NCBI RefSeq assembly: GCF_001975705.1
Contig: NZ_CP015093.1
Span: forward strand, 1,984,001-2,048,000
From: Salipiger abyssi
Lineage (GTDB): Bacteria > Pseudomonadota > Alphaproteobacteria > Rhodobacterales > Rhodobacteraceae
Direction: 5' to 3'
DNA: 64,000 nucleotides
Shown: piece after piece, positions 40,714 through 60,642 of the stretch
Layout: every line of letters starts with the position of its first letter
Numbering within the stretch: the first letter of the stretch is position 1
Program-made: the position numbers and the translations under genes
Notes under the pieces: generated by a model
Database searches by the model: none
Seen by the model: the letters and a program-made list of their open reading frames with translations, nothing else
Told to the model about the DNA's origin: nothing

Positions 40714-42112
40714 GGTAGTGCCCCGAGAGATGGTGTAAGAGCGCCGACCTTCGGAGAGGTTCAAGGCTGATCAGGTCGCCACGGCGGACAGCCTGACGGT
40801 TGTAGTGTCGGTGACACGCGCCAGGCTTTCAAGCGACATGTATCTCCGCGCAACCGTCCATTCGTCATTGGTCTCGAGCATCAGCGCGCCGACGAGACGG
40901 ACGATGGCCTCGTCGTTCGGGAAGATGCCGATGACGTCAGACCTGCGCTTGATCTCCCGGTTCACCCGCTCCAGTGGGTTCGTCGACGCGATCTGGGCCC
41001 AATGCTCACGTGGAAAATCCATGTAGGCGAGGACGTCGTCGCGCGAGGCGTCCATGAGGGCGCCGAGCCGCGCCTGCTTCTCGCGCAGCGCGTCAGCCAC
41101 GACCTCCCACTGGGCTTCGGCATCCGCCTTGTTTTCCTGGGCGAAGATCGTCTTCAGCATTGCCGCCACGGCCGTGCGCTGCTTGGTCGGAGCATGGGCA
41201 AGCGCGTTTCTCATCCAGTGAACGCGACAGCGCTGGTGCGTCGCGTCGAACACCCGCCGCGCGGCAGCCCGCAGCCCCTTGTGGTCATCGGAGACCACCA
41301 GCTTCACGCCGCGCAGGCCACGGTCGGCGAGAGAGCGCAGGAAGTCGGTCCAGAACGTTTCTGCTTCGGATGGACCGGTGGCGACGCCGAGAACTTCGCG
41401 CTTGCCGTCCTCGTTCACAGCTACCGCTATTATCACGGCGCGGCTGATGATCCGCCCGCTCTCGCGCACTTTCACGTAGGTCGCGTCGAGCCAGAGATAG
41501 GGCCAGGCGCCTTCGAGCGGCCGGGAGAGGAATGCATTCACCCGCTCGTCGATTTCGACACAAAGGCGACTGACTTGGCTCTTCGACATGCCGCCAGCGC
41601 CCATCGCCTTCACCAGATCGTCTACGGAGCGCGTCGAGACCCCGTGGACGTAAGCCTCCTGGATCACCGCCACCAGCGCCTTCTCAGCAGTCCGTCGCGG
41701 CTCCAGGAAGCTGGGCAGGTAGCTCCCCTTTCTCAGCCGCGGGATTTCCAGCGCGATCCGACCGGCACGAGTGTCCCAGTCGCGGTCCCGGTAACCGTTT
41801 CGCTGAACCTCCCGCAGGGGAGAGCGAGCGCCCTTCGCGGCACCGGTTCGCGCCTCGACCTCCACTTCCATGATCCGCTCGGCCGCGAAGGCCAGCATCT
41901 CGCGCACGAGATCGCCATCGGCCTGCTTCGCAACCAGCTCAATCAGCGTCATTCTGTCATCGGTCATCGTCATCTCCGTTCTTGGTTCAAGGTCTCGCAA
42001 CCCGAACCTTCTCGAAGATCGGCGGTGGCCGCCAGCGTCACACCCGGCCGCGCGCTGCGCTACGCTGGGGGCTCCGCGCGCGGCCTCCTACACCAAGCGT
42101 TGGGACACTACC
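40714..42112 (-). mobile_element. IS256-family insertion sequence, copy 1
   Basis: 1399 bp with ends GGTAGTGCCCCGAGAGATGG and, in reverse complement on the other side, GGTAGTGTCCCAACGCTTGG. A perfect 8-bp target duplication TGTCGGAT lies at 40706-40713 and 42113-42120. It splits the Tn7-like operon between the tnsA-like gene and tniA. The encoded transposase is identical to those of copies 2 and 3. Confidence 0.95.
40771..42000 (-). CDS. IS256-family transposase, copy 1
   Basis: 409 residues with the Transposase_mut pattern: [38 protein letters not shown] Asp in [11 protein letters not shown], Asp in [10 protein letters not shown] and Glu in [13 protein letters not shown]. Complete, no frameshift. 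Identical in protein sequence to 54852-56081 and 57545-58774, implying recent spread. Confidence 0.95.
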
Positions 42113-45858: not shown

Positions 45859-46186
45859 AACCTCGGTTACGCGATCTTGTAGAGCTTTTTAACCCATCGT
45901 TCGTGAGGGATGGGGCCGTTCCTCCGGCGCGAAATTTCCTTGCGATGTCACCCCTGCCTCTGTGCAAGGAAGCTTAACACGACCGAACGATAACGAATGT
46001 CTTGCGGCGCGTATGACGTTTAAGCTCGCTGCATCGCTTTTGGTATCGTTTGCGTTGGACGATTTTCCAACTTGCGGGGCCGCCAGAAGGCTGCAGGATG
46101 CAGGAGAGTTCGGGAACCGGTGGTGCACGGCACTCGAGAAATTTCGCTATATCGGAAGACCAAAAAAGGTTAACTCGGGGAAGACC
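45859..46186. other. gap upstream of cas3
   Basis: The open frame of cas3 can be extended to 45962, but the added 75 residues look non-coding. The gap should contain the cas promoter. An 8-base string CTATATCG at 46147-46154, 33 bases before the cas3 start, matches positions 2-9 of the pseudo-spacer at 48659. Confidence 0.4.
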
Positions 46187-48643
46187 ATGGCGCTTTTGGA
46201 CTGGCCCGGAAAATCCGCCCCCGAGGGCGGAATTGAACATCCGGCATTCTATCACATGATCGATGTTGCCGCGGTGGCGGAGTGCCTGTTGGGCGCGCTG
46301 AGTATTTCCGTCGAGCGCAAGGCGTTTTATGTCCTGGCGGCGGGTCTGCATGATCTCGGGAAGATCAGCGCCAGCTTTCGCGACATGCTGGGGGAGGGGA
46401 AACCGCAGAGTGCAGGCCGCCACTGGGAGGTGACCGAAGCGTTCCTGTGCGAATTCGACAGACATCTGGCGTCGATTGCAGAGGACGTTAGCTGCCGTCA
46501 CGATCTCTATGCCGCGATTGCCGGGCATCATGGCCGCCCGCCGGTTCAGGAAAGTTTTGACCGCATGATCCGGGCCGCGGGTCGAGAGGCGAAGCCGGAT
46601 GCGCTGGCGGCTCTCAAGGCATTGATCGCGCTTTGGCCAGAGGCGTGTTTCGATCTGCCCGGCGATGAGGTCGCCGCGCAAACATGGTGGCTTCCGGGGC
46701 TGATCGCCGTTGCGGACTGGCTGGGATCGAACCCGCTCTATTTTCCGCCCGTTGCACCGGGGCCCGGCGCAAAAGACTATCTGGACGTAGCGCGCGGAAA
46801 GGCGGCAGCGGCGGTGCGACAGGCGGGTCTGGATCTGCCCGCCGTGTCGCAGGCTCCGGTTATTCCTGAAGACTGGAGCTTGCGCCCGATGCAGCAGGCC
46901 GCGCAGGTCATCTCCTTACCGGACGGGCCAGCGCTGGCGCTGATCGAGGATGAGACGGGCTCGGGCAAGACCGAGGCCGCCCTGATCCTTGCGCAGCGCA
47001 TGATGCTGGCCGGCAAAGGCGCGGGGCTGTTTTTTGCCTTGCCCACGATGGCCACGGCGAATGCGATGTTCGACCGCTGCGCCGATCTGGTCGGCAGGCT
47101 CTATGAAACCGCGCCGAGCCTGGCGCTGGCGCATGGGCGCGCAGGGCTGTCGCATCGTTTTCGGGAGTTGATCCGCGCAAGCCGAAGCCCTGCGCAACCC
47201 TCCTGCACCGAATGGCTGGCCGATGACCGGCGGTGCGCGCTTTTGGCGAATGTCGGTGTCGGCACGGTGGATCAGGCGCTTTTGTCGGCGCTGCCGGTGC
47301 GCCATGCGATGCTGCGCCACTATGCGTTGTCGCAGAAGATCCTGATCGTGGACGAGGTTCACGAGATGGGTGATCCCTATATGGTCGAAGAGCTTGGCCA
47401 TCTGCTGCGGCTGCACCGTCGCATGGGCGGATCGGCGATCCTGATGACAGCAACGATGCCGATGGATCTCAGGGCGCGGCTTTGCCGGGCGTTTGGGTGC
47501 GCGCCGCCCGAAAGCCGTGCCTACCCAGCGCTGACCGTGGCGGGACATGGCCAGATCACCGATCTGCCTCCGGTGAAGACACGCGGCCCGGTTCGGGTCG
47601 TGCGCCTGCCGGAGCGGGACGCGGCGCTGGGTCTTTTGCAGCAGGCGGCTGCGGAGGGCGCGGCGGCGCTCTGGGTGCGGAATGCGGTGGACGATGCCAT
47701 CGACGCCGTTCAGGCCTTACGGGCACGGGGTGTCGATGCCGGTCTGCTGCATGCCCGTTTCGCGCTGTGCGACCGGATGCGTCACGAACAACGGGCGCTT
47801 GCCACCTTTGGCAAGGCCCGGGAGGATCGTCCGGGCCGGGTGCTGGTGGCGACGCAGGTGGTCGAAAGCTCCCTCGATCTGGATTTCGACGTCATGGTGT
47901 CCGACCTTGCGCCAATCCCGGCGCTGGTGCAGCGGGCGGGGCGGCTCTGGCGGCATATGGACCGGCGTCCCGCCGGGGGCCGGCCCTGTGCCGCGCCGGT
48001 GCTGCATGTCGTCTCGCCCGATCCTGGGGATGTCGCCGACCGGCTGTGGCTGCGCCGTGTGCTGGATCGCGGCGCGTTCACCTATTCGCTCGACCTGCAA
48101 TGGCGCGCAGCGCGCGCCTTGTTTGCTGCCGGACAGATCGATGCGCCGGACGGTCTGCGCGCGCTCATCGAAGAGGGGCTTTCGGGCGGCACGCTGCCGG
48201 AGGCTCTGGCGCAGGCGGAAGAGGATCGCATCGGGCAGGGCTTTGCGCAAACCGATCTCGCACAGCAGAACCTGATTGACCTGTCGCAGCCCTATCGCGG
48301 GATCAAGGGGTTTGCCGACGATGCCGATTTCCCGACACGGCTGGGTGTGGAGCAGCGCGTGCTGGTGTTGGCGCGCAGGGCCGAGGCGGGTCTGGTGCCG
48401 CTGGATGCGGACAGCTGGACAGTGGACAGCCGCCAGCGATCCGAGATCAGCGCAGCCGCGCGCCGGCTCAACGGCCTGCCTCTTCCCGATCAGTCGGCGC
48501 CGGAGATCGCCGCAGTGAAACGGGACTGGCCGGAGTGGCTGCAAACCCGTCTGACGCTGTGCCCGGTGGCGGAGGACGGCACGATTTGCGAGGGCTTGTC
48601 ATATGATCCGGAAGCAGGTTTAATTCTCGGCAGTTCCCGGTAG
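46187..48643 (+). CDS. cas3: CRISPR-associated helicase/nuclease Cas3 (type I-E)
   Basis: 818 residues from ATG 46187, which puts the HD domain at the N-terminus as expected. HD nuclease: His23 (AFYHMIDV), His55-Asp56 (GLHDLGKIS) and GHHGRPP. SF2 helicase: Walker A DETGSGKTEA (about 256), DEVH box (VDEVHEMG, about 389), TATMP motif III, and motif VI QRAGRLWRH. It unwinds and degrades target DNA after Cascade binding. Its stop codon lies inside the first degenerate repeat of the CreA-like unit (48631-48658). Intact, so this is an interference-competent system rather than a transposon-type Cascade. Confidence 0.95.
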   Translation: MALLDWPGKSAPEGGIEHPAFYHMIDVAAVAECLLGALSISVERKAFYVLAAGLHDLGKISASFRDMLGEGKPQSAGRHWEVTEAFLCEFDRHLASIAEDVSCRHDLYAAIAGHHGRPPVQESFDRMIRAAGREAKPDALAALKALIALWPEACFDLPGDEVAAQTWWLPGLIAVADWLGSNPLYFPPVAPGPGAKDYLDVARGKAAAAVRQAGLDLPAVSQAPVIPEDWSLRPMQQAAQVISLPDGPALALIEDETGSGKTEAALILAQRMMLAGKGAGLFFALPTMATANAMFDRCADLVGRLYETAPSLALAHGRAGLSHRFRELIRASRSPAQPSCTEWLADDRRCALLANVGVGTVDQALLSALPVRHAMLRHYALSQKILIVDEVHEMGDPYMVEELGHLLRLHRRMGGSAILMTATMPMDLRARLCRAFGCAPPESRAYPALTVAGHGQITDLPPVKTRGPVRVVRLPERDAALGLLQQAAAEGAAALWVRNAVDDAIDAVQALRARGVDAGLLHARFALCDRMRHEQRALATFGKAREDRPGRVLVATQVVESSLDLDFDVMVSDLAPIPALVQRAGRLWRHMDRRPAGGRPCAAPVLHVVSPDPGDVADRLWLRRVLDRGAFTYSLDLQWRAARALFAAGQIDAPDGLRALIEEGLSGGTLPEALAQAEEDRIGQGFAQTDLAQQNLIDLSQPYRGIKGFADDADFPTRLGVEQRVLVLARRAEAGLVPLDADSWTVDSRQRSEISAAARRLNGLPLPDQSAPEIAAVKRDWPEWLQTRLTLCPVAEDGTICEGLSYDPEAGLILGSSR

Positions 48644-48718
48644 GTCCGGGATCTCCCGTCTATATCGAGCGGGGTTGCAGTTCCCTTTAACGTTCCCCGC
48701 CTCAGCGGGGATAAGTCT
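48631..48718 (+). ncRNA. CreA-like degenerate mini-CRISPR RNA
   Basis: Two diverged copies of the local I-E repeat flank a 32-nt pseudo-spacer. Repeat 1 (48631-48658) reads CAGTTCCCGG, loop TAGGT, CCGGGATC, ending TCCCG; repeat 2 (about 48690-48715) reads CGTTCCCCGC, loop CTCA, GCGGGGATAA. The last 8 bases of repeat 1 (ATCTCCCG) match the array handle ATCAACCG at 6 of 8. The pseudo-spacer 48659-48690 starts TCTATATCGAG, and the same 11 bases recur at 48716 after an AAG motif. This is the form of a CreA antitoxin RNA: it is expected to load onto Cascade and repress a nearby promoter. Transcription is probably read-through from cas3. Confidence 0.72.
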
Positions 48719-48747
48719 ATATCGAGGGGTATAAGGGGTAAAAAAAT
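48716..48747. promoter_or_regulatory. predicted Cascade/CreA target at the creT-like promoter
   Basis: Positions 1-11 (TCTATATCGAG) equal the seed end of the pseudo-spacer at 48659; later positions match only at 13, 14 and 17. The three bases before it are AAG (48713-48715), a canonical I-E PAM. The site ends one base before the TTGACA box. Limited pairing is expected to permit binding without Cas3 cleavage. Confidence 0.65.
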
Positions 48748-48748
48748 C

Positions 48749-48777
48749 TTGACAGCCGAGCTTGTGAAGGCTGTTAT
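48749..48777 (+). promoter_or_regulatory. strong sigma70 promoter of the creT-like RNA
   Basis: TTGACA (48749-48754), 17-base spacer, TGTTAT (48772-48777); start predicted near 48784. One of the best promoter matches in the window. Confidence 0.7.
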
Positions 48778-48783
48778 GGAAGG

Positions 48784-48940
48784 CAAGAAGGGGTGAGGGT
48801 TTCCCCTCACCCCTTCTTTGTGGAGCCACATCGGCTGTTGCCGCAGCCGCTCGGTGACGGGAGGTTAAGAAGATGCTTACGATACCTTAACGCGCCCGTT
48901 ACCGCCCTTTTAGGTTATACTAACGGGGCGGTAACGGGCA
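48784..48940 (+). ncRNA. CreT-like toxin RNA with mini-ORF
   Basis: Begins with a perfect 15-bp hairpin (arms 48785-48799 and 48804-48818, loop TTTC). Next come the ribosome-binding site GGGAGG (48859-48864), eight bases, and the mini-ORF at 48873-48890. A perfect 14-bp stem-loop follows (arms 48894-48907 and 48926-48939). Known CreT RNAs combine a strong ribosome site, a mini-ORF with rare codons and a stem-loop, and act by sequestering a rare tRNA. The exact ends of this RNA are inferred. Confidence 0.62.
48873..48890 (+). CDS. mini-ORF of the CreT-like RNA (M-L-T-I-P)
   Basis: ATG CTT ACG ATA CCT TAA, preceded by GGGAGG at ideal spacing. The ATA isoleucine codon is very rare in a GC-rich genome, and CTT is also uncommon. 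A five-codon frame with this strong a start makes sense as a ribosome/tRNA trap rather than a protein gene. Confidence 0.55.
   Translation: MLTIP

Positions 48941-50471: not shown

Positions 50472-50475
<4 letters not shown>
48979..50475 (+). CDS. cas8e: Cascade large subunit Cas8e (Cse1/CasA)
   Basis: 498 residues, normal for Cse1. Starts MSLNLISDAWIPV, the family's opening motif, and continues with YEFLIGLVYLAAPP, NTAKNNADLMVHRD (PAM-sensing region), QQFAPSGGAGNRTSMRGGGPL and the C-terminal four-helix bundle. It recognises the PAM and recruits Cas3. The start is 39 bases after the CreT-like stem-loop. Its stop overlaps the cse2 start by four bases. Confidence 0.93.
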
Positions 50476-52723
<2,248 letters not shown>

Positions 52724-52727
<4 letters not shown>

Positions 52728-53395
52728 TGTATCTCTCGCGATTGCGCCTCTCGCGGGATCCGAAGGTGGCCGCGCTCGATGTGCTGCTCGATCCCACGCC
52801 GGGAGGCGACAGGCTCGATGCCCATCACCGGCTTGTGTGGACGGCCTTTGCCGGCGATCCGCAGGCCAGGCGCGATTTTCTGTGGCGGGAGGAGGGGCAG
52901 GGCGTCTTTCTGGTCCAGTCTTCCCGCCCGCCTGAGGACAGCCCGTTTTTCGAGACGCCGGAGGTGCGTGAACACGCGCCCGACCTGCGGGCCGGAGACC
53001 GTCTGTCCTTTCTTTTGCGCGCGAATGCGACACGCGATTTGGGAGGGGAGAAGCGCAGGCGCGTCGATGTGGTCATGAACCTGCTCCACGGGGTGCCCAA
53101 GGCGGAGCGCAACCGGAAGCGGATGGATCTGGCTGCCGAGGCGGCAGATCAATGGATGACGGGGCAGGGCAGCCGTGCGGGATTTGCGCCCGAACGGATC
53201 GAGGTGCAGGACTATCGCACCGTGACCCTGCCGGGGTATCGCGGGCGGCGGCGCGGAGAGCCGCGTTTCGGCATTCTGGATTTGACCGGACAGATCACCC
53301 TGACCGATCCCGACGCCTTTGTGCAGAAGCTGACGCAAGGCTTTGGGCGGGCGAAGAGCTTTGGTTGCGGGCTGATGCTGATCCGGAGGGCCTGA
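52724..53395 (+). CDS. cas6e: crRNA endoribonuclease Cas6e (CasE)
   Basis: 223 residues. Tandem RRM-like fold starting MMYLSRLRLSRDPKV; likely catalytic His in LDAHHRLVWTAF; C-terminal glycine-rich loop GFGRAKSFGCGLMLIRR. It cuts each repeat at the base of the hairpin and stays bound. The degenerate repeats at 48631 and 48690 keep a short hairpin and may also be substrates. Confidence 0.93.
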
Positions 53396-53398
53396 GCC

Positions 53399-54605
<1,207 letters not shown>

Positions 54606-54689: not shown

Positions 54690-54739
54690 CCGTTCCCCGC
54701 TCGCGCGGGGATCAACCGGTGCGGCGCGGGTAGCCCATA

Positions 54740-56138
54740 GGTAGTGTCCCAACGCTTGGTGTAGGAGGCCGCGCGCGGAGCCCCCAGCGTAGCGCAGCGC
54801 GCGGCCGGGTGTGACGCTGGCGGCCACCGCCGATCTTCGAGAAGGTTCGGGTTGCGAGACCTTGAACCAAGAACGGAGATGACGATGACCGATGACAGAA
54901 TGACGCTGATTGAGCTGGTTGCGAAGCAGGCCGATGGCGATCTCGTGCGCGAGATGCTGGCCTTCGCGGCCGAGCGGATCATGGAAGTGGAGGTCGAGGC
55001 GCGAACCGGTGCCGCGAAGGGCGCTCGCTCTCCCCTGCGGGAGGTTCAGCGAAACGGTTACCGGGACCGCGACTGGGACACTCGTGCCGGTCGGATCGCG
55101 CTGGAAATCCCGCGGCTGAGAAAGGGGAGCTACCTGCCCAGCTTCCTGGAGCCGCGACGGACTGCTGAGAAGGCGCTGGTGGCGGTGATCCAGGAGGCTT
55201 ACGTCCACGGGGTCTCGACGCGCTCCGTAGACGATCTGGTGAAGGCGATGGGCGCTGGCGGCATGTCGAAGAGCCAAGTCAGTCGCCTTTGTGTCGAAAT
55301 CGACGAGCGGGTGAATGCATTCCTCTCCCGGCCGCTCGAAGGCGCCTGGCCCTATCTCTGGCTCGACGCGACCTACGTGAAAGTGCGCGAGAGCGGGCGG
55401 ATCATCAGCCGCGCCGTGATAATAGCGGTAGCTGTGAACGAGGACGGCAAGCGCGAAGTTCTCGGCGTCGCCACCGGTCCATCCGAAGCAGAAACGTTCT
55501 GGACCGACTTCCTGCGCTCTCTCGCCGACCGTGGCCTGCGCGGCGTGAAGCTGGTGGTCTCCGATGACCACAAGGGGCTGCGGGCTGCCGCGCGGCGGGT
55601 GTTCGACGCGACGCACCAGCGCTGTCGCGTTCACTGGATGAGAAACGCGCTTGCCCATGCTCCGACCAAGCAGCGCACGGCCGTGGCGGCAATGCTGAAG
55701 ACGATCTTCGCCCAGGAAAACAAGGCGGATGCCGAAGCCCAGTGGGAGGTCGTGGCTGACGCGCTGCGCGAGAAGCAGGCGCGGCTCGGCGCCCTCATGG
55801 ACGCCTCGCGCGACGACGTCCTCGCCTACATGGATTTTCCACGTGAGCATTGGGCCCAGATCGCGTCGACGAACCCACTGGAGCGGGTGAACCGGGAGAT
55901 CAAGCGCAGGTCTGACGTCATCGGCATCTTCCCGAACGACGAGGCCATCGTCCGTCTCGTCGGCGCGCTGATGCTCGAGACCAATGACGAATGGACGGTT
56001 GCGCGGAGATACATGTCGCTTGAAAGCCTGGCGCGTGTCACCGACACTACAACCGTCAGGCTGTCCGCCGTGGCGACCTGATCAGCCTTGAACCTCTCCG
56101 AAGGTCGGCGCTCTTACACCATCTCTCGGGGCACTACC
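54740..56138 (+). mobile_element. IS256-family insertion sequence, copy 2 (in spacer 1)
   Basis: 1399 bp, same ends as copy 1 but reversed. A 9-bp duplication TAGCCCATA lies at 54731-54739 and 56139-56147. It sits in the leader-proximal spacer, so no spacer has been added since it arrived, and it may block transcription of the rest of the array. Confidence 0.95.
54852..56081 (+). CDS. IS256-family transposase, copy 2
   Basis: 409 residues, identical in protein sequence to copies 1 and 3. Same orientation as the array. Confidence 0.95.
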
Positions 56139-57487
56139 TAGCCCATATCTTCGTCATACCGTTCCCCGCTCGCGCGGGGATCAACCGCTCGGCCAACGCT
56201 CGATCAGGATCGCTTTGAGCCGTTCCCCGCTCGCGCGGGGATCAACCGCGCGACCACGCGAAGGTGCCACCAGAAACGCCCCGTTCCCCGCTCGCGCGGG
56301 GATCAACCGACATCCACCCCGGTGAAGCGCGGGAAGCTCGCCCGTTCCCCGCTCGCGCGGGGATCAACCGGGGCGCTGGTTTGCCCCGTGATCGACCAGC
56401 GACCGTTCCCCGCTCGCGCGGGGATCAACCGCGGTTACGTTTGGGCTGGTAGTTCGGCGGATCCCGTTCCCCGCTCGCGCGGGGATCAACCGGCTCACGG
56501 CCGCGACGACGCGCTCCTGCCCCTCCGTTCCCCGCTCGCGCGGGGATCAACCGTCGAACAGTCCAGGGGCTCGTCCGACGAATGGCCGTTCCCCGCTCGC
56601 GCGGGGATCAACCGATCACGTTCCCCATGCAAACCAGCGGGGAGCCCCGTTCCCCGCTCGCGCGGGGATCAACCGGCGGCAGATGACTTTCGCCTTGTCG
56701 AAGCTCACCGTTCCCCGCTCGCGCGGGGATCAACCGCACCACGTTGCTTGCGTCGAATATAAGGTTCACCGTTCCCCGCTCGCGCGGGGATCAACCGTCG
56801 GATGTCGCAGGTTCGATCCCTGTCACTGGCCGTTCCCCGCTCGCGCGGGGATCAACCGCTGCACGTACCGGTCGAAGCGATCTGCGATTTCCGTTCCCCG
56901 CTCGCGCGGGGATCAACCGAGCCAATGCCTTATCGCCATTTCGCGTTACGCCCGTTCCCCGCTCGCGCGGGGATCAACCGGTCTTCCACCGCGATACGAA
57001 ACACCTTGAGGACCGTTCCCCGCTCGCGCGGGGATCAACCGCATTTTGCGCCGAACCGAATGCAGTTGCTCGATCCGTTCCCCGCTCGCGCGGGGATCAA
57101 CCGGCGCCTAGAGTTTTGAGCCGTGCGCTTTCGATCCGTTCCCCGCTCGCGCGGGGATCAACCGGCACGAAGCAGGCCGGCCGCGGCCTCGTGCGCCCGT
57201 TCCCCGCTCGCGCGGGGATCAACCGCGTTCACGGGACATCGTGAAACCTCTTCAAAACCGTTCCCCGCTCGCGCGGGGATCAACCGGTCCGGGTTGCGCT
57301 CGATGACCTCGAGCAATTCCGTTCCCCGCTCGCGCGGGGATCAACCGGGCCTGAGACCACGATGGCCGCAGACGCGAATCCGTTCCCCGCTCGCGCGGGG
57401 ATCAACCTTGCCCAGCCAGCATTTGCCATTCACATTCGGCCCGTTCCCCGCTCGCGCGGGGATCAACCGGATTCGCACGCCGCCGCC

Positions 57488-58886
57488 GGTAGTGCCCCGA
57501 GAGATGGTGTAAGAGCGCCGACCTTCGGAGAGGTTCAAGGCTGATCAGGTCGCCACGGCGGACAGCCTGACGGTTGTAGTGTCGGTGACACGCGCCAGGC
57601 TTTCAAGCGACATGTATCTCCGCGCAACCGTCCATTCGTCATTGGTCTCGAGCATCAGCGCGCCGACGAGACGGACGATGGCCTCGTCGTTCGGGAAGAT
57701 GCCGATGACGTCAGACCTGCGCTTGATCTCCCGGTTCACCCGCTCCAGTGGGTTCGTCGACGCGATCTGGGCCCAATGCTCACGTGGAAAATCCATGTAG
57801 GCGAGGACGTCGTCGCGCGAGGCGTCCATGAGGGCGCCGAGCCGCGCCTGCTTCTCGCGCAGCGCGTCAGCCACGACCTCCCACTGGGCTTCGGCATCCG
57901 CCTTGTTTTCCTGGGCGAAGATCGTCTTCAGCATTGCCGCCACGGCCGTGCGCTGCTTGGTCGGAGCATGGGCAAGCGCGTTTCTCATCCAGTGAACGCG
58001 ACAGCGCTGGTGCGTCGCGTCGAACACCCGCCGCGCGGCAGCCCGCAGCCCCTTGTGGTCATCGGAGACCACCAGCTTCACGCCGCGCAGGCCACGGTCG
58101 GCGAGAGAGCGCAGGAAGTCGGTCCAGAACGTTTCTGCTTCGGATGGACCGGTGGCGACGCCGAGAACTTCGCGCTTGCCGTCCTCGTTCACAGCTACCG
58201 CTATTATCACGGCGCGGCTGATGATCCGCCCGCTCTCGCGCACTTTCACGTAGGTCGCGTCGAGCCAGAGATAGGGCCAGGCGCCTTCGAGCGGCCGGGA
58301 GAGGAATGCATTCACCCGCTCGTCGATTTCGACACAAAGGCGACTGACTTGGCTCTTCGACATGCCGCCAGCGCCCATCGCCTTCACCAGATCGTCTACG
58401 GAGCGCGTCGAGACCCCGTGGACGTAAGCCTCCTGGATCACCGCCACCAGCGCCTTCTCAGCAGTCCGTCGCGGCTCCAGGAAGCTGGGCAGGTAGCTCC
58501 CCTTTCTCAGCCGCGGGATTTCCAGCGCGATCCGACCGGCACGAGTGTCCCAGTCGCGGTCCCGGTAACCGTTTCGCTGAACCTCCCGCAGGGGAGAGCG
58601 AGCGCCCTTCGCGGCACCGGTTCGCGCCTCGACCTCCACTTCCATGATCCGCTCGGCCGCGAAGGCCAGCATCTCGCGCACGAGATCGCCATCGGCCTGC
58701 TTCGCAACCAGCTCAATCAGCGTCATTCTGTCATCGGTCATCGTCATCTCCGTTCTTGGTTCAAGGTCTCGCAACCCGAACCTTCTCGAAGATCGGCGGT
58801 GGCCGCCAGCGTCACACCCGGCCGCGCGCTGCGCTACGCTGGGGGCTCCGCGCGCGGCCTCCTACACCAAGCGTTGGGACACTACC
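57488..58886 (-). mobile_element. IS256-family insertion sequence, copy 3 (in spacer 23)
   Basis: 1399 bp in the opposite orientation to copy 2. An 8-bp duplication CCGCCGCC lies at 57480-57487 and 58887-58894. With copy 2 it forms an inverted pair around 22 repeats. Confidence 0.95.
57545..58774 (-). CDS. IS256-family transposase, copy 3
   Basis: 409 residues, identical in protein sequence to copies 1 and 2. Antisense to the array. Confidence 0.95.
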
Positions 58887-60336
58887 CCGCCGCCGGGGGT
58901 GACCTCGACCGTTCCCCGCTCGCGCGGGGATCAACCGATGTGACCATTGCCCCGGAATACGTTGAGGGGCCGTTCCCCGCTCGCGCGGGGATCAACCGCG
59001 ATGATCGACGCCAAGAATTTTCGCGCCCAACCGTTCCCCGCTCGCGCGGGGATCAACCGGGCGCAGATGTCGGTGACGGCACGAGCGGACCCCGTTCCCC
59101 GCTCGCGCGGGGATCAACCGGGCGAGCTGATGGATCTTCTTCAGCCGCTGGCCCGTTCCCCGCTCGCGCGGGGATCAACCGGCGCAGCAAGCCATAGCAG
59201 TCAGCGCCACTGCCCGTTCCCCGCTCGCGCGGGGATCAACCGCGACTCGTGAACAGCGACGACCCGAGTGGCGACCGTTCCCCGCTCGCGCGGGGATCAA
59301 CCGATCACCAGTGGGCAGGAGCAGGCCGCTCGGGTCCGTTCCCCGCTCGCGCGGGGATCAACCGCGCTGAACCGCGACCTGGCCGCCGCATCTGGCCCGT
59401 TCCCCGCTCGCGCGGGGATCAACCGTCGGCTGGCGTCATGGGCGAGGGACAGGAAAACCGTTCCCCGCTCGCGCGGGGATCAACCGGCCCGAGCCGCCGG
59501 CGAGCTGGTGGAGATCGTCCGTTCCCCGCTCGCGCGGGGATCAACCGCTGGCCGGGCAGTTGAACGACCAGATCAACGGCCGTTCCCCGCTCGCGCGGGG
59601 ATCAACCGGAATGATGATGGAACGGCAATACGAGATCGCCCCGTTCCCCGCTCGCGCGGGGATCAACCGGGACATTACCCATGGTTTCCCGGATGTGGTC
59701 GCCGTTCCCCGCTCGCGCGGGGATCAACCGGAAACCGGCATCATGAATTTCGCCGGAGACCACCGTTCCCCGCTCGCGCGGGGATCAACCGCGCCGCACC
59801 TTGCCGCCGCTGGCCGTTCCGAACCGTTCCCCGCTCGCGCGGGGATCAACCGAGACCGGACATCGTCCCGACTGGGACGTCAAGCCGTTCCCCGCTCGCG
59901 CGGGGATCAACCGCTGTCGTTGCCATCAACCGTGTGCCGCAGCCGCCGTTCCCCGCTCGCGCGGGGATCAACCGATGGACGGGCAGGGCGGTGACCAGTC
60001 GATGATCCGTTCCCCGCTCGCGCGGGGATCAACCGGAACGTCAGGGGCACCCGATCTCTCTGGAGGCCCGTTCCCCGCTCGCGCGGGGATCAACCGCTGG
60101 ATGATTTGCCCACCCTAAACGGCCTCGATCGTTCCCCGCTCGCGCGGGGATCAACCGGCTCGGGGCGGATCATATCGGTGCGAGACAATCCGTTCCCCGC
60201 TCGCGCGGGGATCAACCGAGCACCAACTTCTCATACGGGTCGAGATCATCCCGTTCCCCGCTCGCGCGGGGATCAACCGGAAAAGTTCCCCGACTGGGAT
60301 CCGACGAATGACCGTTCCCCGCTCGCGCGGGGATCC

Positions 60337-60642
60337 GCTTTGAGGCGAGGCGAAGGCTAACAAATTGGCTGCTGCAACAGCACGGCTCCCACTGGCGTCC
60401 CATGGGCCTTCGCAGCCGCAGTGAGATCGCGCATTCGCAGCTAACGACCGCTTGGTACCGCACGGTCGACGTTCACCCAATAAAAGTGCTGGCGATGGCC
60501 GAACGGCCGGTCTGGTGAGGCTGCACCGCAGCAAAGGCGTCTTTGGTGAACGGCTGGAGTGGGCCGAGAGATTCAGGTGGTAGGGAGGGATCGCGTGGCT
60601 TGCCCGCTTCAGCAGTCTCGACGCGGCATCTGGAGGTGACGG
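60337..60642. other. 306-bp gap after the array
   Basis: No gene supported. GC-rich filler resembling other island gaps (CTTTGGTGAACGGCTGGAGTG). Confidence 0.35.

What the first reader, a model, noticed from the sequence alone, without database searches (positions are those of the whole stretch)
48631..48940. CreTA-like CRISPR-guarding toxin-antitoxin RNA pair between cas3 and cas8e
All parts are visible: two degenerate I-E repeats around a 32-nt pseudo-spacer; an 11-nt seed match (TCTATATCGAG) to a site with an AAG PAM; that site abutting a TTGACA-17-TGTTAT promoter; and a short RNA with a 15-bp hairpin, GGGAGG, a five-codon mini-ORF with rare ATA, and a 14-bp stem-loop. Established knowledge: CreA RNAs use Cascade to repress CreT, whose release kills cells that lose Cascade. 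Here the antitoxin unit precedes the toxin and shares the cas3 stop codon. I know of no described example in this lineage.
Basis: partly seen in the sequence, partly recalled or inferred. Interest (0 to 1): 0.95.

Follow-up and report, generated by a model that had tools for sequence, protein, structure and literature searches.

The report
CRISPR-guarding toxin-antitoxin RNA pair (CreTA)
Between two CRISPR genes of this bacterium lies a small unit in which a degenerate CRISPR guide matches a site just before the likely promoter of a five-codon, hairpin-flanked mini-gene with a rare codon; its parts recur in related bacteria, and it is predicted to poison cells that lose their CRISPR complex.

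Summary
In the 335-bp cas3-cas8e gap of a Rhodobacterales type I-E locus lie two degenerate repeats, a 31-nt pseudo-spacer, an AAG-flanked target with an 11/11 seed match, a TTGACA box, and a hairpin-flanked mini-ORF (ATG CTT ACG ATA CCT TAA) behind a Shine-Dalgarno. Counting the window, 28 of 89 cas3-cas8e gaps hold such a guide/target pair (shuffles expect 1.2). Guides differ, yet guide-target mismatches avoid positions 2-5, 7 and 11 and pile up at 6, 12 and 18, the bases Cascade flips out. Mini-ORFs picked without regard to codons carry a rare codon at codon 4 in 15 of 20 (ATA 10, TTA 4, AGG 1). The RNA's two 5' hairpins covary, and a model built on them found one further member beside another cas3. 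Toxicity, processing and repression are untested. CreTA is a known kind: haloarchaeal I-B, Acinetobacter I-F, and Citrobacter rodentium I-E in the same gene gap. New here is a lineage with a nearly fixed rare-codon register, a guide embedded in the cas3 tail, and a second repeat whose end serves as the target's PAM. A few loci have the guide but no toxin-like RNA and resemble CreR autoregulators.

The parts
45962..48643 (+). cas3 (its true start may lie further in); its last codons and stop overlap psiR1
   Evidence: Cas3 HD, DEAD and C-terminal Pfam domains
48630..48658 (+). psiR1: degenerate repeat that keeps a short hairpin and a 5' handle ATCTCCCG (array: ATCAACCG)
   Evidence: the 28 handles of the family are listed
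48659..48689 (+). psiS: pseudo-spacer, 31 nt; CreA guide begins TCTATATCGAG
48690..48718 (+). psiR2: second degenerate repeat, hairpin kept, 3' end changed to ATAAG...
48713..48715 (+). PAM AAG, inside the 3' end of psiR2
   Evidence: PAM-blind test
48716..48747 (+). Cascade target (protospacer); first 11 nt identical to the guide
48749..48777 (+). predicted PcreT promoter: TTGACA - 17 nt - TGTTAT (the -10 is weak)
   Evidence: not reported by the strict scan
48785..48818 (+). CreT hairpin H1, 15 bp, at the predicted 5' end of the transcript
   Evidence: covarying in the family
48832..48849 (+). CreT hairpin H2, 6 bp with loop UUGCCG
   Evidence: not in the minimum-energy fold of the window's 110-nt 5' segment
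48859..48864 (+). Shine-Dalgarno GGGAGG
48873..48890 (+). CreT mini-ORF ATG CTT ACG ATA CCT TAA; rare ATA is codon 4
48894..48939 (+). CreT hairpin H3, GC-rich, begins 3 nt after the stop codon
48979..50475 (+). cas8e (cse1), first Cascade gene
   Evidence: PF09481, 8e-74
50472..54340 (+). cse2, cas7e, cas5e, cas6e (the rest of the complex that the unit would guard) and cas1
   Evidence: cse2 by position only, no Pfam match
54690..60340 (+). CRISPR array, 61-nt period, 47 exact copies of the repeat core, split by two IS copies

Best explanation
The cas3-cas8e gap holds a CreTA-type unit: a degenerate mini-CRISPR whose guide matches an AAG-flanked site at the likely promoter of a predicted hairpin-flanked mini-ORF RNA, and it is predicted to let Cascade keep that toxic RNA silent, so that loss of Cascade would release it. 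Inferred working: (1) creA is transcribed as the tail of the cas3 message and cut by Cas6e at psiR1 and psiR2, giving a crRNA-like RNA. (2) Cascade with this guide pairs at seed positions 1-5 and 7-11 beside AAG and covers the promoter without the full match needed for Cas3 attack. (3) If Cascade fails, CreT is made. Its Shine-Dalgarno loads ribosomes on a five-codon ORF. The rare AUA at codon 4, with a stable stem-loop starting at +22 from the start codon, would hold or exhaust tRNA-Ile(CAU), for which one gene was found, and stop growth. Shown here: the anatomy, its conservation, the mismatch pattern, the codon-4 rule, the hairpin covariation. Not shown: transcripts, processing, repression, toxicity.
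For: Guide/target pairs behind a repeat handle in 28 of 89 gaps, 1.2 expected. Mismatches at positions 6, 12 and 18 in 19, 19 and 17 of 28 pairs, none at 2-5, 7 or 11 (p 1.6e-11 over positions 1-11; p 1.3e-7 in the first 19 loci); in the seven loci added after the pattern was seen (L101, L108, L109, L115, L120, L121, L188) position 6 takes 6 of 11 mismatches. PAM-blind best pairs are preceded by AAG in 25 of 33. Automatic mini-ORFs: rare codon at codon 4 in 15 of 20, against 3 of 21, 1 of 21 and 5 of 15 at codons 2, 3 and 5; in this genome ATA is 0.2-0.5% and TTA 0.02-0.06% of codons. H1+H2 covariation 0.524 against 0.208 shuffled and at most 0.18 slid (the structure was read from the same alignment). 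The RNA model found an untrained member beside a cas3, with its own AAG target and ATA at codon 4. Peptides differ between loci, so an RNA toxin fits. One Ile(CAU)-like tRNA gene, assigned by recalled resemblance.
Against: No expression or toxicity data. The window's -10 box is weak and a strict scan finds no promoter; H2 is absent from the window's minimum-energy 5' fold. Codon 4 is ATG, ACA, ACA and CTT in L008, L050, L075 and L115, and L016 stops after three codons; some may be decayed or work otherwise. The 3' stem-loop is not unusually stable in 8 of 22 loci (z above -2). Nine loci have guide and target but no recognised mini-ORF RNA (three of them with an unusual or no PAM), so the guide can serve another end. 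Whether CreT ends before cas8e in the window is unclear, so the promoter might drive cas8e. In the haloarchaeal relative, deleting codons 2-3 left the toxin active, so the codon-4 register may not be essential. The module does not follow the cas8e tree.
Confidence: 0.82

Rival explanations
1. CreR-type autoregulation only: the guide lets Cascade repress a promoter that drives cas8e and the rest of the operon; the hairpins and mini-ORF are a leader that tunes translation, not a toxin.
For: Four loci carry guide and target with a gap of only about 160-175 bp and no room for the CreT RNA (L015, L070, L113, L120; the targets of L070 and L113 follow AAC and AAA). CreR is an established kind (review PMC12737573, passages).
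Against: It does not predict rare codons at codon 4, an SD of 5-8 of 8 matches on so short an ORF in all 21 hand-picked loci, or a stem right behind the ORF. A loose scan flags a terminator-like site between the ORF and cas8e in 9 of 22 loci, clearest in L022, L043, L047 and L054.
Confidence: 0.1
2. Hybrid: PcreT drives both CreT and cas8e in some loci, perhaps this one. A dip in Cascade raises toxin and Cascade together, so only cells that cannot rebuild Cascade die.
For: By the loose scan, 13 of 22 loci show no terminator-like site before cas8e (one, L188, is cut by its contig end). In the window the tool's scan lists only a 5-bp stem that overlaps the cas8e start, no more than shuffles give.
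Against: The same loose scan does flag a T-rich stretch 18 nt before cas8e in the window. No transcript data; cas8e may have its own promoter or be read from cas3. Odds lowered from 0.3 to 0.25 on recheck for this flag.
Confidence: 0.25
3. Chance or relic: a decayed mini-array with accidental seed repeat and unrelated hairpins.
For: Some relatives look decayed (L021 start lost). The module is scattered on the cas8e tree (20 changes for 21 rows).
Against: 28 of 89 against 1.2 expected; position-specific conservation; covariation.
Confidence: 0.03
4. Peptide toxin: the encoded peptide is the poison.
For: In C. rodentium translation of a 96-bp CreT ORF is needed.
Against: Peptides are 3 to about 12 residues and unrelated between loci, while a rare codon at codon 4 is kept in most.
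Confidence: 0.05

Closest known systems
Halobacterium hubeiense CreTA (type I-B; PMC8501985, abstract and parts 2-4 of 6 read)
   Same: Two divergent repeats, seed match at 1-5 and 7-11 beside a PAM, mini-ORF with AUA, essential stem-loop; its two AUA codons are also codons 4 and 5.
   Different: Archaeal, type I-B, leaderless without SD, creT before creA; no 5' hairpins mentioned in the parts read.
Haloarcula hispanica CreTA (type I-B; as described in PMC8501985 and PMC12737573)
   Same: SD, start codon, rare codons next to it, stem-loop; Cascade-repressed.
   Different: AGA codons and tRNA-Arg(UCU), one repeat only, between cas6 and cas8.
Citrobacter rodentium type I-E CreTA (PMC12055562, passages)
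   Same: Type I-E, between cas3 and casA, PAM-flanked target next to a promoter, Cascade-dependent; toxicity shown there.
   Different: Guide on the opposite strand, 96-bp ORF without rare codons, no homology found by its authors.
Acinetobacter type I-F CreTA (PMC10097628, passages and one section)
   Same: cas3-csy1 gap, two repeats, SD plus mini-ORF, RNA toxin; further members were found by its authors in the same gap of relatives.
   Different: Divergent orientation, 33-bp ORF, another proposed mode of action than rare-codon tRNA sequestration.
CreR, Cas-regulating crRNA-like RNA (review PMC12737573, passages)
   Same: Degenerate guide that sends Cascade to a promoter in the cas locus; loci L015, L070, L113 and L120 look like this.
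   Different: Generally no toxin; represses cas genes.
Standalone mini-arrays matching cas8 promoters (Shmakov et al. 2023, doi 10.1093/nar/gkad495; recalled, not held)
   Same: Mini-arrays with partial matches to cas8 or cargo promoters across type I.
   Different: Recalled as a survey; whether it lists these loci could not be checked.
Phage lambda bar minigene AUG AUA UAA (recalled, no call)
   Same: Very short ORF with AUA that ties up tRNA-Ile as peptidyl-tRNA.
   Different: Not CRISPR-linked; no stem-loop; only a functional analogy.

Membership tests
CreTA (CRISPR-regulated toxin-antitoxin) | Two divergent repeat-like sequences flank a pseudo-spacer, outside the array, within a class 1 cas locus | tested here: met
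CreTA (CRISPR-regulated toxin-antitoxin) | psiR1 keeps the 5' handle better, psiR2 keeps the hairpin part better | tested here: met
   Counted by eye for the window only: handle 6 of 8 in psiR1, 4 of 8 in psiR2; first 21 nt 12 of 21 against 16 of 21. Family handles AT...CC in 28 of 28, but that pattern was the search condition
CreTA (CRISPR-regulated toxin-antitoxin) | Partial seed complementarity (1-5, 7-11) to a PAM-flanked site | tested here: met
CreTA (CRISPR-regulated toxin-antitoxin) | Target lies in or at the toxin promoter | tested here: inconclusive
   TTGACA directly after the protospacer, weak -10; strict scan negative; a -35-like box 17-41 nt from the target start in 20 of 28 loci, by a loose pattern
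CreTA (CRISPR-regulated toxin-antitoxin) | Toxin RNA: efficient start, rare codons, stable stem-loop (tRNA-sequestering group) | tested here: met
   (sequence level, for the window; relatives vary)
CreTA (CRISPR-regulated toxin-antitoxin) | CreT is toxic when not repressed | not testable with these tools
   Needs expression
CreTA (CRISPR-regulated toxin-antitoxin) | CreA processed by Cas6 and repression dependent on Cascade | not testable with these tools
   Needs small-RNA sequencing and reporters
CreR (cas autoregulation) | Guide targets the promoter of the cas operon | tested here: inconclusive
   Scans disagree on a terminator between CreT and cas8e in the window
CreR (cas autoregulation) | Not coupled to a toxin-like gene | tested here: not met
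   Mini-ORF RNA present and conserved
Citrobacter rodentium-type I-E CreTA | Guide divergent from a 96-bp ORF without rare codons | tested here: not met
   Same-strand guide and 18-bp ORF with ATA; paper

The most novel reading that the evidence does not exclude
A separate, alphaproteobacterial line of CRISPR guards built from one self-targeting mini-array. Its antitoxin is carved out of the cas3 message, so stopping cas3 transcription would also arm the toxin. The end of its second repeat has turned into the PAM that makes a copy of its own spacer the target. Its toxin is a ribosome trap with the rare codon set at codon 4 against a stem-loop. In some loci the same repressed promoter also feeds the Cascade operon, so a cell gets a chance to rebuild Cascade before it dies.
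Probability: 0.28. Interest if true: 0.85.

Novelty: new variant of a known kind. Interest (0 to 1): 0.72.

Why it matters
CreT RNAs are so small and variable that plain sequence search finds few; the Acinetobacter authors had to inspect cas3-csy1 gaps by hand. Here a bacterial family with about 20 members is held together by guide-target pairs and covarying hairpins, which gives a way to find more. The 6/12/18 mismatch pattern is natural, comparative evidence that Cascade's flipped-base pairing shapes regulatory guides. The codon-4 register and the choice among ATA, TTA and AGG make tRNA sequestration testable by single synonymous changes in ordinary laboratory bacteria. The coexistence of toxin-bearing, apparently decayed and guide-only loci in related genomes may show how guards turn into regulators or the reverse.

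Tried and rejected
Rejected: chance; a known Rfam family (six weak hits, all far below gathering scores; best E 0.0008 to CsrC, on the hairpin alone); H1 as a terminator of creA (H1 of several relatives is followed by no T run). A plasmid BLAST with the window's gap found nothing. RNAalifold on the full-length alignment recovered only H2, so H1 was taken from pair counts. The covariance model gave five matches at E below 0.001 among 394 family genomes, the five at cas3 ends, and among 385 class genomes nothing but the window below that; weak hits (E 0.001-0.1) were not followed up, and only about 10 candidates per genome were scored under strict filters, so members can be missed (L101, in the sampled genome G388, was not found). 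Whether Cascade genes stay intact more often beside a guide pair: 0 of 20 against 7 of 59 with a stop or frame break, suggestive only, not tested formally. Does the module follow the cas8e tree? No: 20 changes for 21 rows, like shuffled labels.

Rows dropped before counts: loci with no cas3 end found, with a gap over 700 bp, duplicates between collections, and two copies of the window's own locus (L002, L003); 89 gaps remained, the window and L188 among them. Gap lengths printed by my scripts are one base too long. The automatic mini-ORF count used 21 of the 28 paired loci that passed the SD score; one of the 21 (L066) is probably a spurious ORF, one (L018) was started elsewhere than in my hand choice, and L047 and L075 did not pass. 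R1's training rows are also its best hits, so only L188 is independent; L055, L060 and L101 were classed as CreT by eye. The guide-only group of the tree holds three loci (L061, L070, L113) added by hand outside the 28.

Literature: searches showed no CreTA in Rhodobacterales in the listings of the held library, which lacks most subscription papers. Beyond the papers named in Closest known systems, PMC9458426 was seen as one passage, PMC10192219 as passages on peptidyl-tRNA drop-off, PMC11656645 as passages.
Full report
What is there. The window is G000:C5:1984001-2048000 of a 5.26-Mb genome; its cas8e is nearest to those of Celeribacter, Lutimaribacter and Nioella, that is, Rhodobacterales. 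A type I-E locus runs cas3 - cas8e - cse2 - cas7e - cas5e - cas6e - cas1 into one array with 47 exact copies of a 21-nt repeat core.

Is it more than chance? I took 79 cas8e loci, further loci from unnamed relatives and plasmids and one locus found by an RNA model, and cut out 89 usable cas3-cas8e gaps, the window included. Gap length is split: 44 of 61 gaps without a guide pair are at most 125 bp, while the 28 with one are 160-606 bp. Requiring only a repeat-like handle, a type I-E PAM and at least 8 of 11 seed matches, 28 of 89 gaps have a pair; dinucleotide shuffles give 1.2. Without any PAM condition, the best pair (at least 9 of 11) is preceded by AAG in 25 of 33 gaps.

The strongest single result is the pattern of mismatches between each guide and its own target. 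Over 28 loci, positions 2-5, 7 and 11 never differ; positions 6, 12 and 18 differ in 19, 19 and 17 loci; position 1 in 3, 8 in 3, 9 in 7, 10 in 3. The sixth and twelfth bases do not take part in pairing, and the published CreA guide needs exactly positions 1-5 and 7-11 (PMC8501985); that position 18 is flipped too is recalled. The criterion for choosing pairs treated positions 1-11 alike, so the excess at position 6 (19 of 35 mismatches, 3.2 expected, p 1.6e-11) is not built in. I saw the pattern first in loci that stay in this count; in the seven loci added later position 6 takes 6 of 11 mismatches. The guides differ between loci, so this looks like repeated co-evolution under Cascade pairing. 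The lesser peaks at 9 and 15 are unexplained.

The toxin-like RNA. Downstream of the target come a TTGACA-like box (in 20 of 28 by a loose pattern), a hairpin H1 where the transcript should begin, a small hairpin H2 with a UUNNNG hexaloop in 15 of 18 aligned loci, a Shine-Dalgarno 7 nt before the start in 13 of 21, an ORF of 3-8 sense codons in most, and a hairpin H3 right behind it. On 18 aligned sequences, 84.8% of cells in H1 and H2 pair, with a covariation score of 0.524 against 0.208 for shuffles (0 of 500 as high) and at most 0.18 when the partners are slid; the structure was read from the same alignment, which favours it somewhat. In the window's own minimum-energy 5' fold H1 forms but H2 does not. 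H3 is not alignable, but its main helix starts 15-30 nt from the ORF start in 19 of 22 loci (median about 23) and has z at or below -2 in 14 of 22.

Codon 4. I first saw by eye that the rare codon sits at codon 4. A script that picks the ORF by Shine-Dalgarno score, start codon and a length of 2-14 codons gives a rare codon (ATA, TTA, AGA, AGG or CTA) at codon 4 in 15 of 20 ORFs, against 3 of 21 at codon 2, 1 of 21 at codon 3, 5 of 15 at codon 5 and 1 of 10 at codon 6. In the window's genome ATA is 0.2-0.5% of codons and TTA 0.02-0.06%, depending on the ORF filter. Among 42 tRNA genes found three bear CAT; by resemblance to known tRNAs, recalled, they are the initiator, the elongator Met and one tRNA-Ile2. 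The peptides share nothing, so the RNA and its codons are what is kept. A likely reason for the register, inferred: with codon 3 in the P site the front edge of the ribosome (about 15 nt ahead, recalled) touches a stem that starts near +22, so the rare codon waits in the A site against a roadblock. Against making the register essential: in H. hubeiense CreT, whose two AUA are also codons 4 and 5, deleting codons 2-3 left it toxic.

An independent member. A covariance model of H1, H2, SD and the first codons was run on 394 genomes of the family. The four best matches were known cas3-cas8e loci; the fifth (L188, E 4.5e-5) was not in the training set, lies directly after a cas3 end at a contig edge, and has its own AAG target, a guide that differs from it at position 6 only within the first 12, and ATG GGT CCG ATA. 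Weaker matches (E 0.006 and above) were not followed up, and the search scores few candidates per genome.

Architecture that differs from published CreTAs. Guide and toxin lie on one strand, guide first. In 24 of 28 loci psiR1 overlaps the end of cas3, and in 10 of 28 the cas3 stop codon is the TGA of the repeat handle. So CreA probably comes from the cas3 message. In the window the target follows psiR2 directly, and the end of psiR2 supplies the PAM. This looks like a repeat-spacer-repeat-spacer unit in which the second repeat lost its protective CCG end and turned its own second spacer into a target. That history is inference.

Toxin or regulator? Four loci (L015, L070, L113, L120) have guide and target in a gap of about 160-175 bp with no room for CreT; they look like CreR, though L070 and L113 lack a standard PAM and L120 shows no -35-like box. 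A loose scan flags a terminator-like site between the ORF and cas8e in 9 of 22 CreT loci, the window among them, and none in 13; the stricter tool finds none in the window beyond a 5-bp stem over the cas8e start. I therefore hold CreTA as the best reading and a hybrid (toxin plus Cascade autoregulation from one promoter) as a live sub-case, its odds lowered slightly on recheck.

Distribution. On a quick cas8e tree of 89 rows the CreT-bearing loci are scattered (20 changes for 21 rows; shuffled mean 19.1); sister species such as Rhodovulum steppense and R. euryhalinum differ. The module is therefore gained or lost often. Cascade genes look broken in 0 of 20 loci with a guide pair and 7 of 59 without, in the direction expected of a guard, but too few to conclude. 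The genome carries 8 identical copies of an IS; two have split the array and none lies in the cas genes.

Novelty. Type I-E CreTA in the cas3-casA gap is in print for Citrobacter rodentium, AUA-using CreT for a haloarchaeon, and a CreTA in the cas3-csy1 gap for Acinetobacter. Systematic mini-arrays at cas8 promoters are recalled from Shmakov et al. 2023, which was not held. I saw no Rhodobacterales CreTA in the listings of the held library. So this is a new variant of a known kind, now with a family, a codon rule and a structural signature.

Noticed in passing
window 40771-42000, 54852-56081, 57545-58774: Three identical copies of a Mutator/IS256-type transposase; 8 identical copies in the genome. 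Two split the CRISPR array, none lies in the cas genes.
   Followed up: partly
L015, L070, L113, L120: Guide and target directly before cas8e without a CreT RNA: possible CreR-type autoregulators in type I-E. L070 and L113 lack a standard PAM; L120 shows no -35-like box.
   Followed up: partly
L101 gap before cas8e: Mini-ORF with three TTA codons in a row (ATG GCC CAA TTA TTA TTA CAA AAC TGA) behind a perfect SD and a Cascade-type guide/target pair; would aim at tRNA-Leu(UAA). Its 3' stem-loop is weak.
   Followed up: partly
L066 1868-2059; L061 4738-5010: Guide-bearing gaps with a small predicted protein (63 aa) or a 90-aa ORF, the latter running into cas8e and perhaps spurious, instead of the mini-ORF RNA: possible protein cargo under Cascade control.
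   Followed up: no
family guide/target pairs: Secondary mismatch peaks at positions 9 (7 of 28) and 15 (13 of 28) between the flipped bases; no explanation.
   Followed up: no
CreT hairpin H2, window 48838-48843: UUNNNG hexaloop kept in 15 of 18 aligned loci on covarying stems; role unknown.
   Followed up: no
L008, L021, L075: Guide and target kept, but the mini-ORF has lost its rare codon or start: toxins that may have decayed.
   Followed up: no
L029, L033: Gaps of over 1 kb between cas3 and cas8e hold CRISPR-like repeats with 61-nt or 122-nt spacing.
   Followed up: no
own genus (G088, G419, G475, G627): The four congeners listed lack cas8e, so the CRISPR locus may be a recent arrival in this genome.
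   Followed up: no
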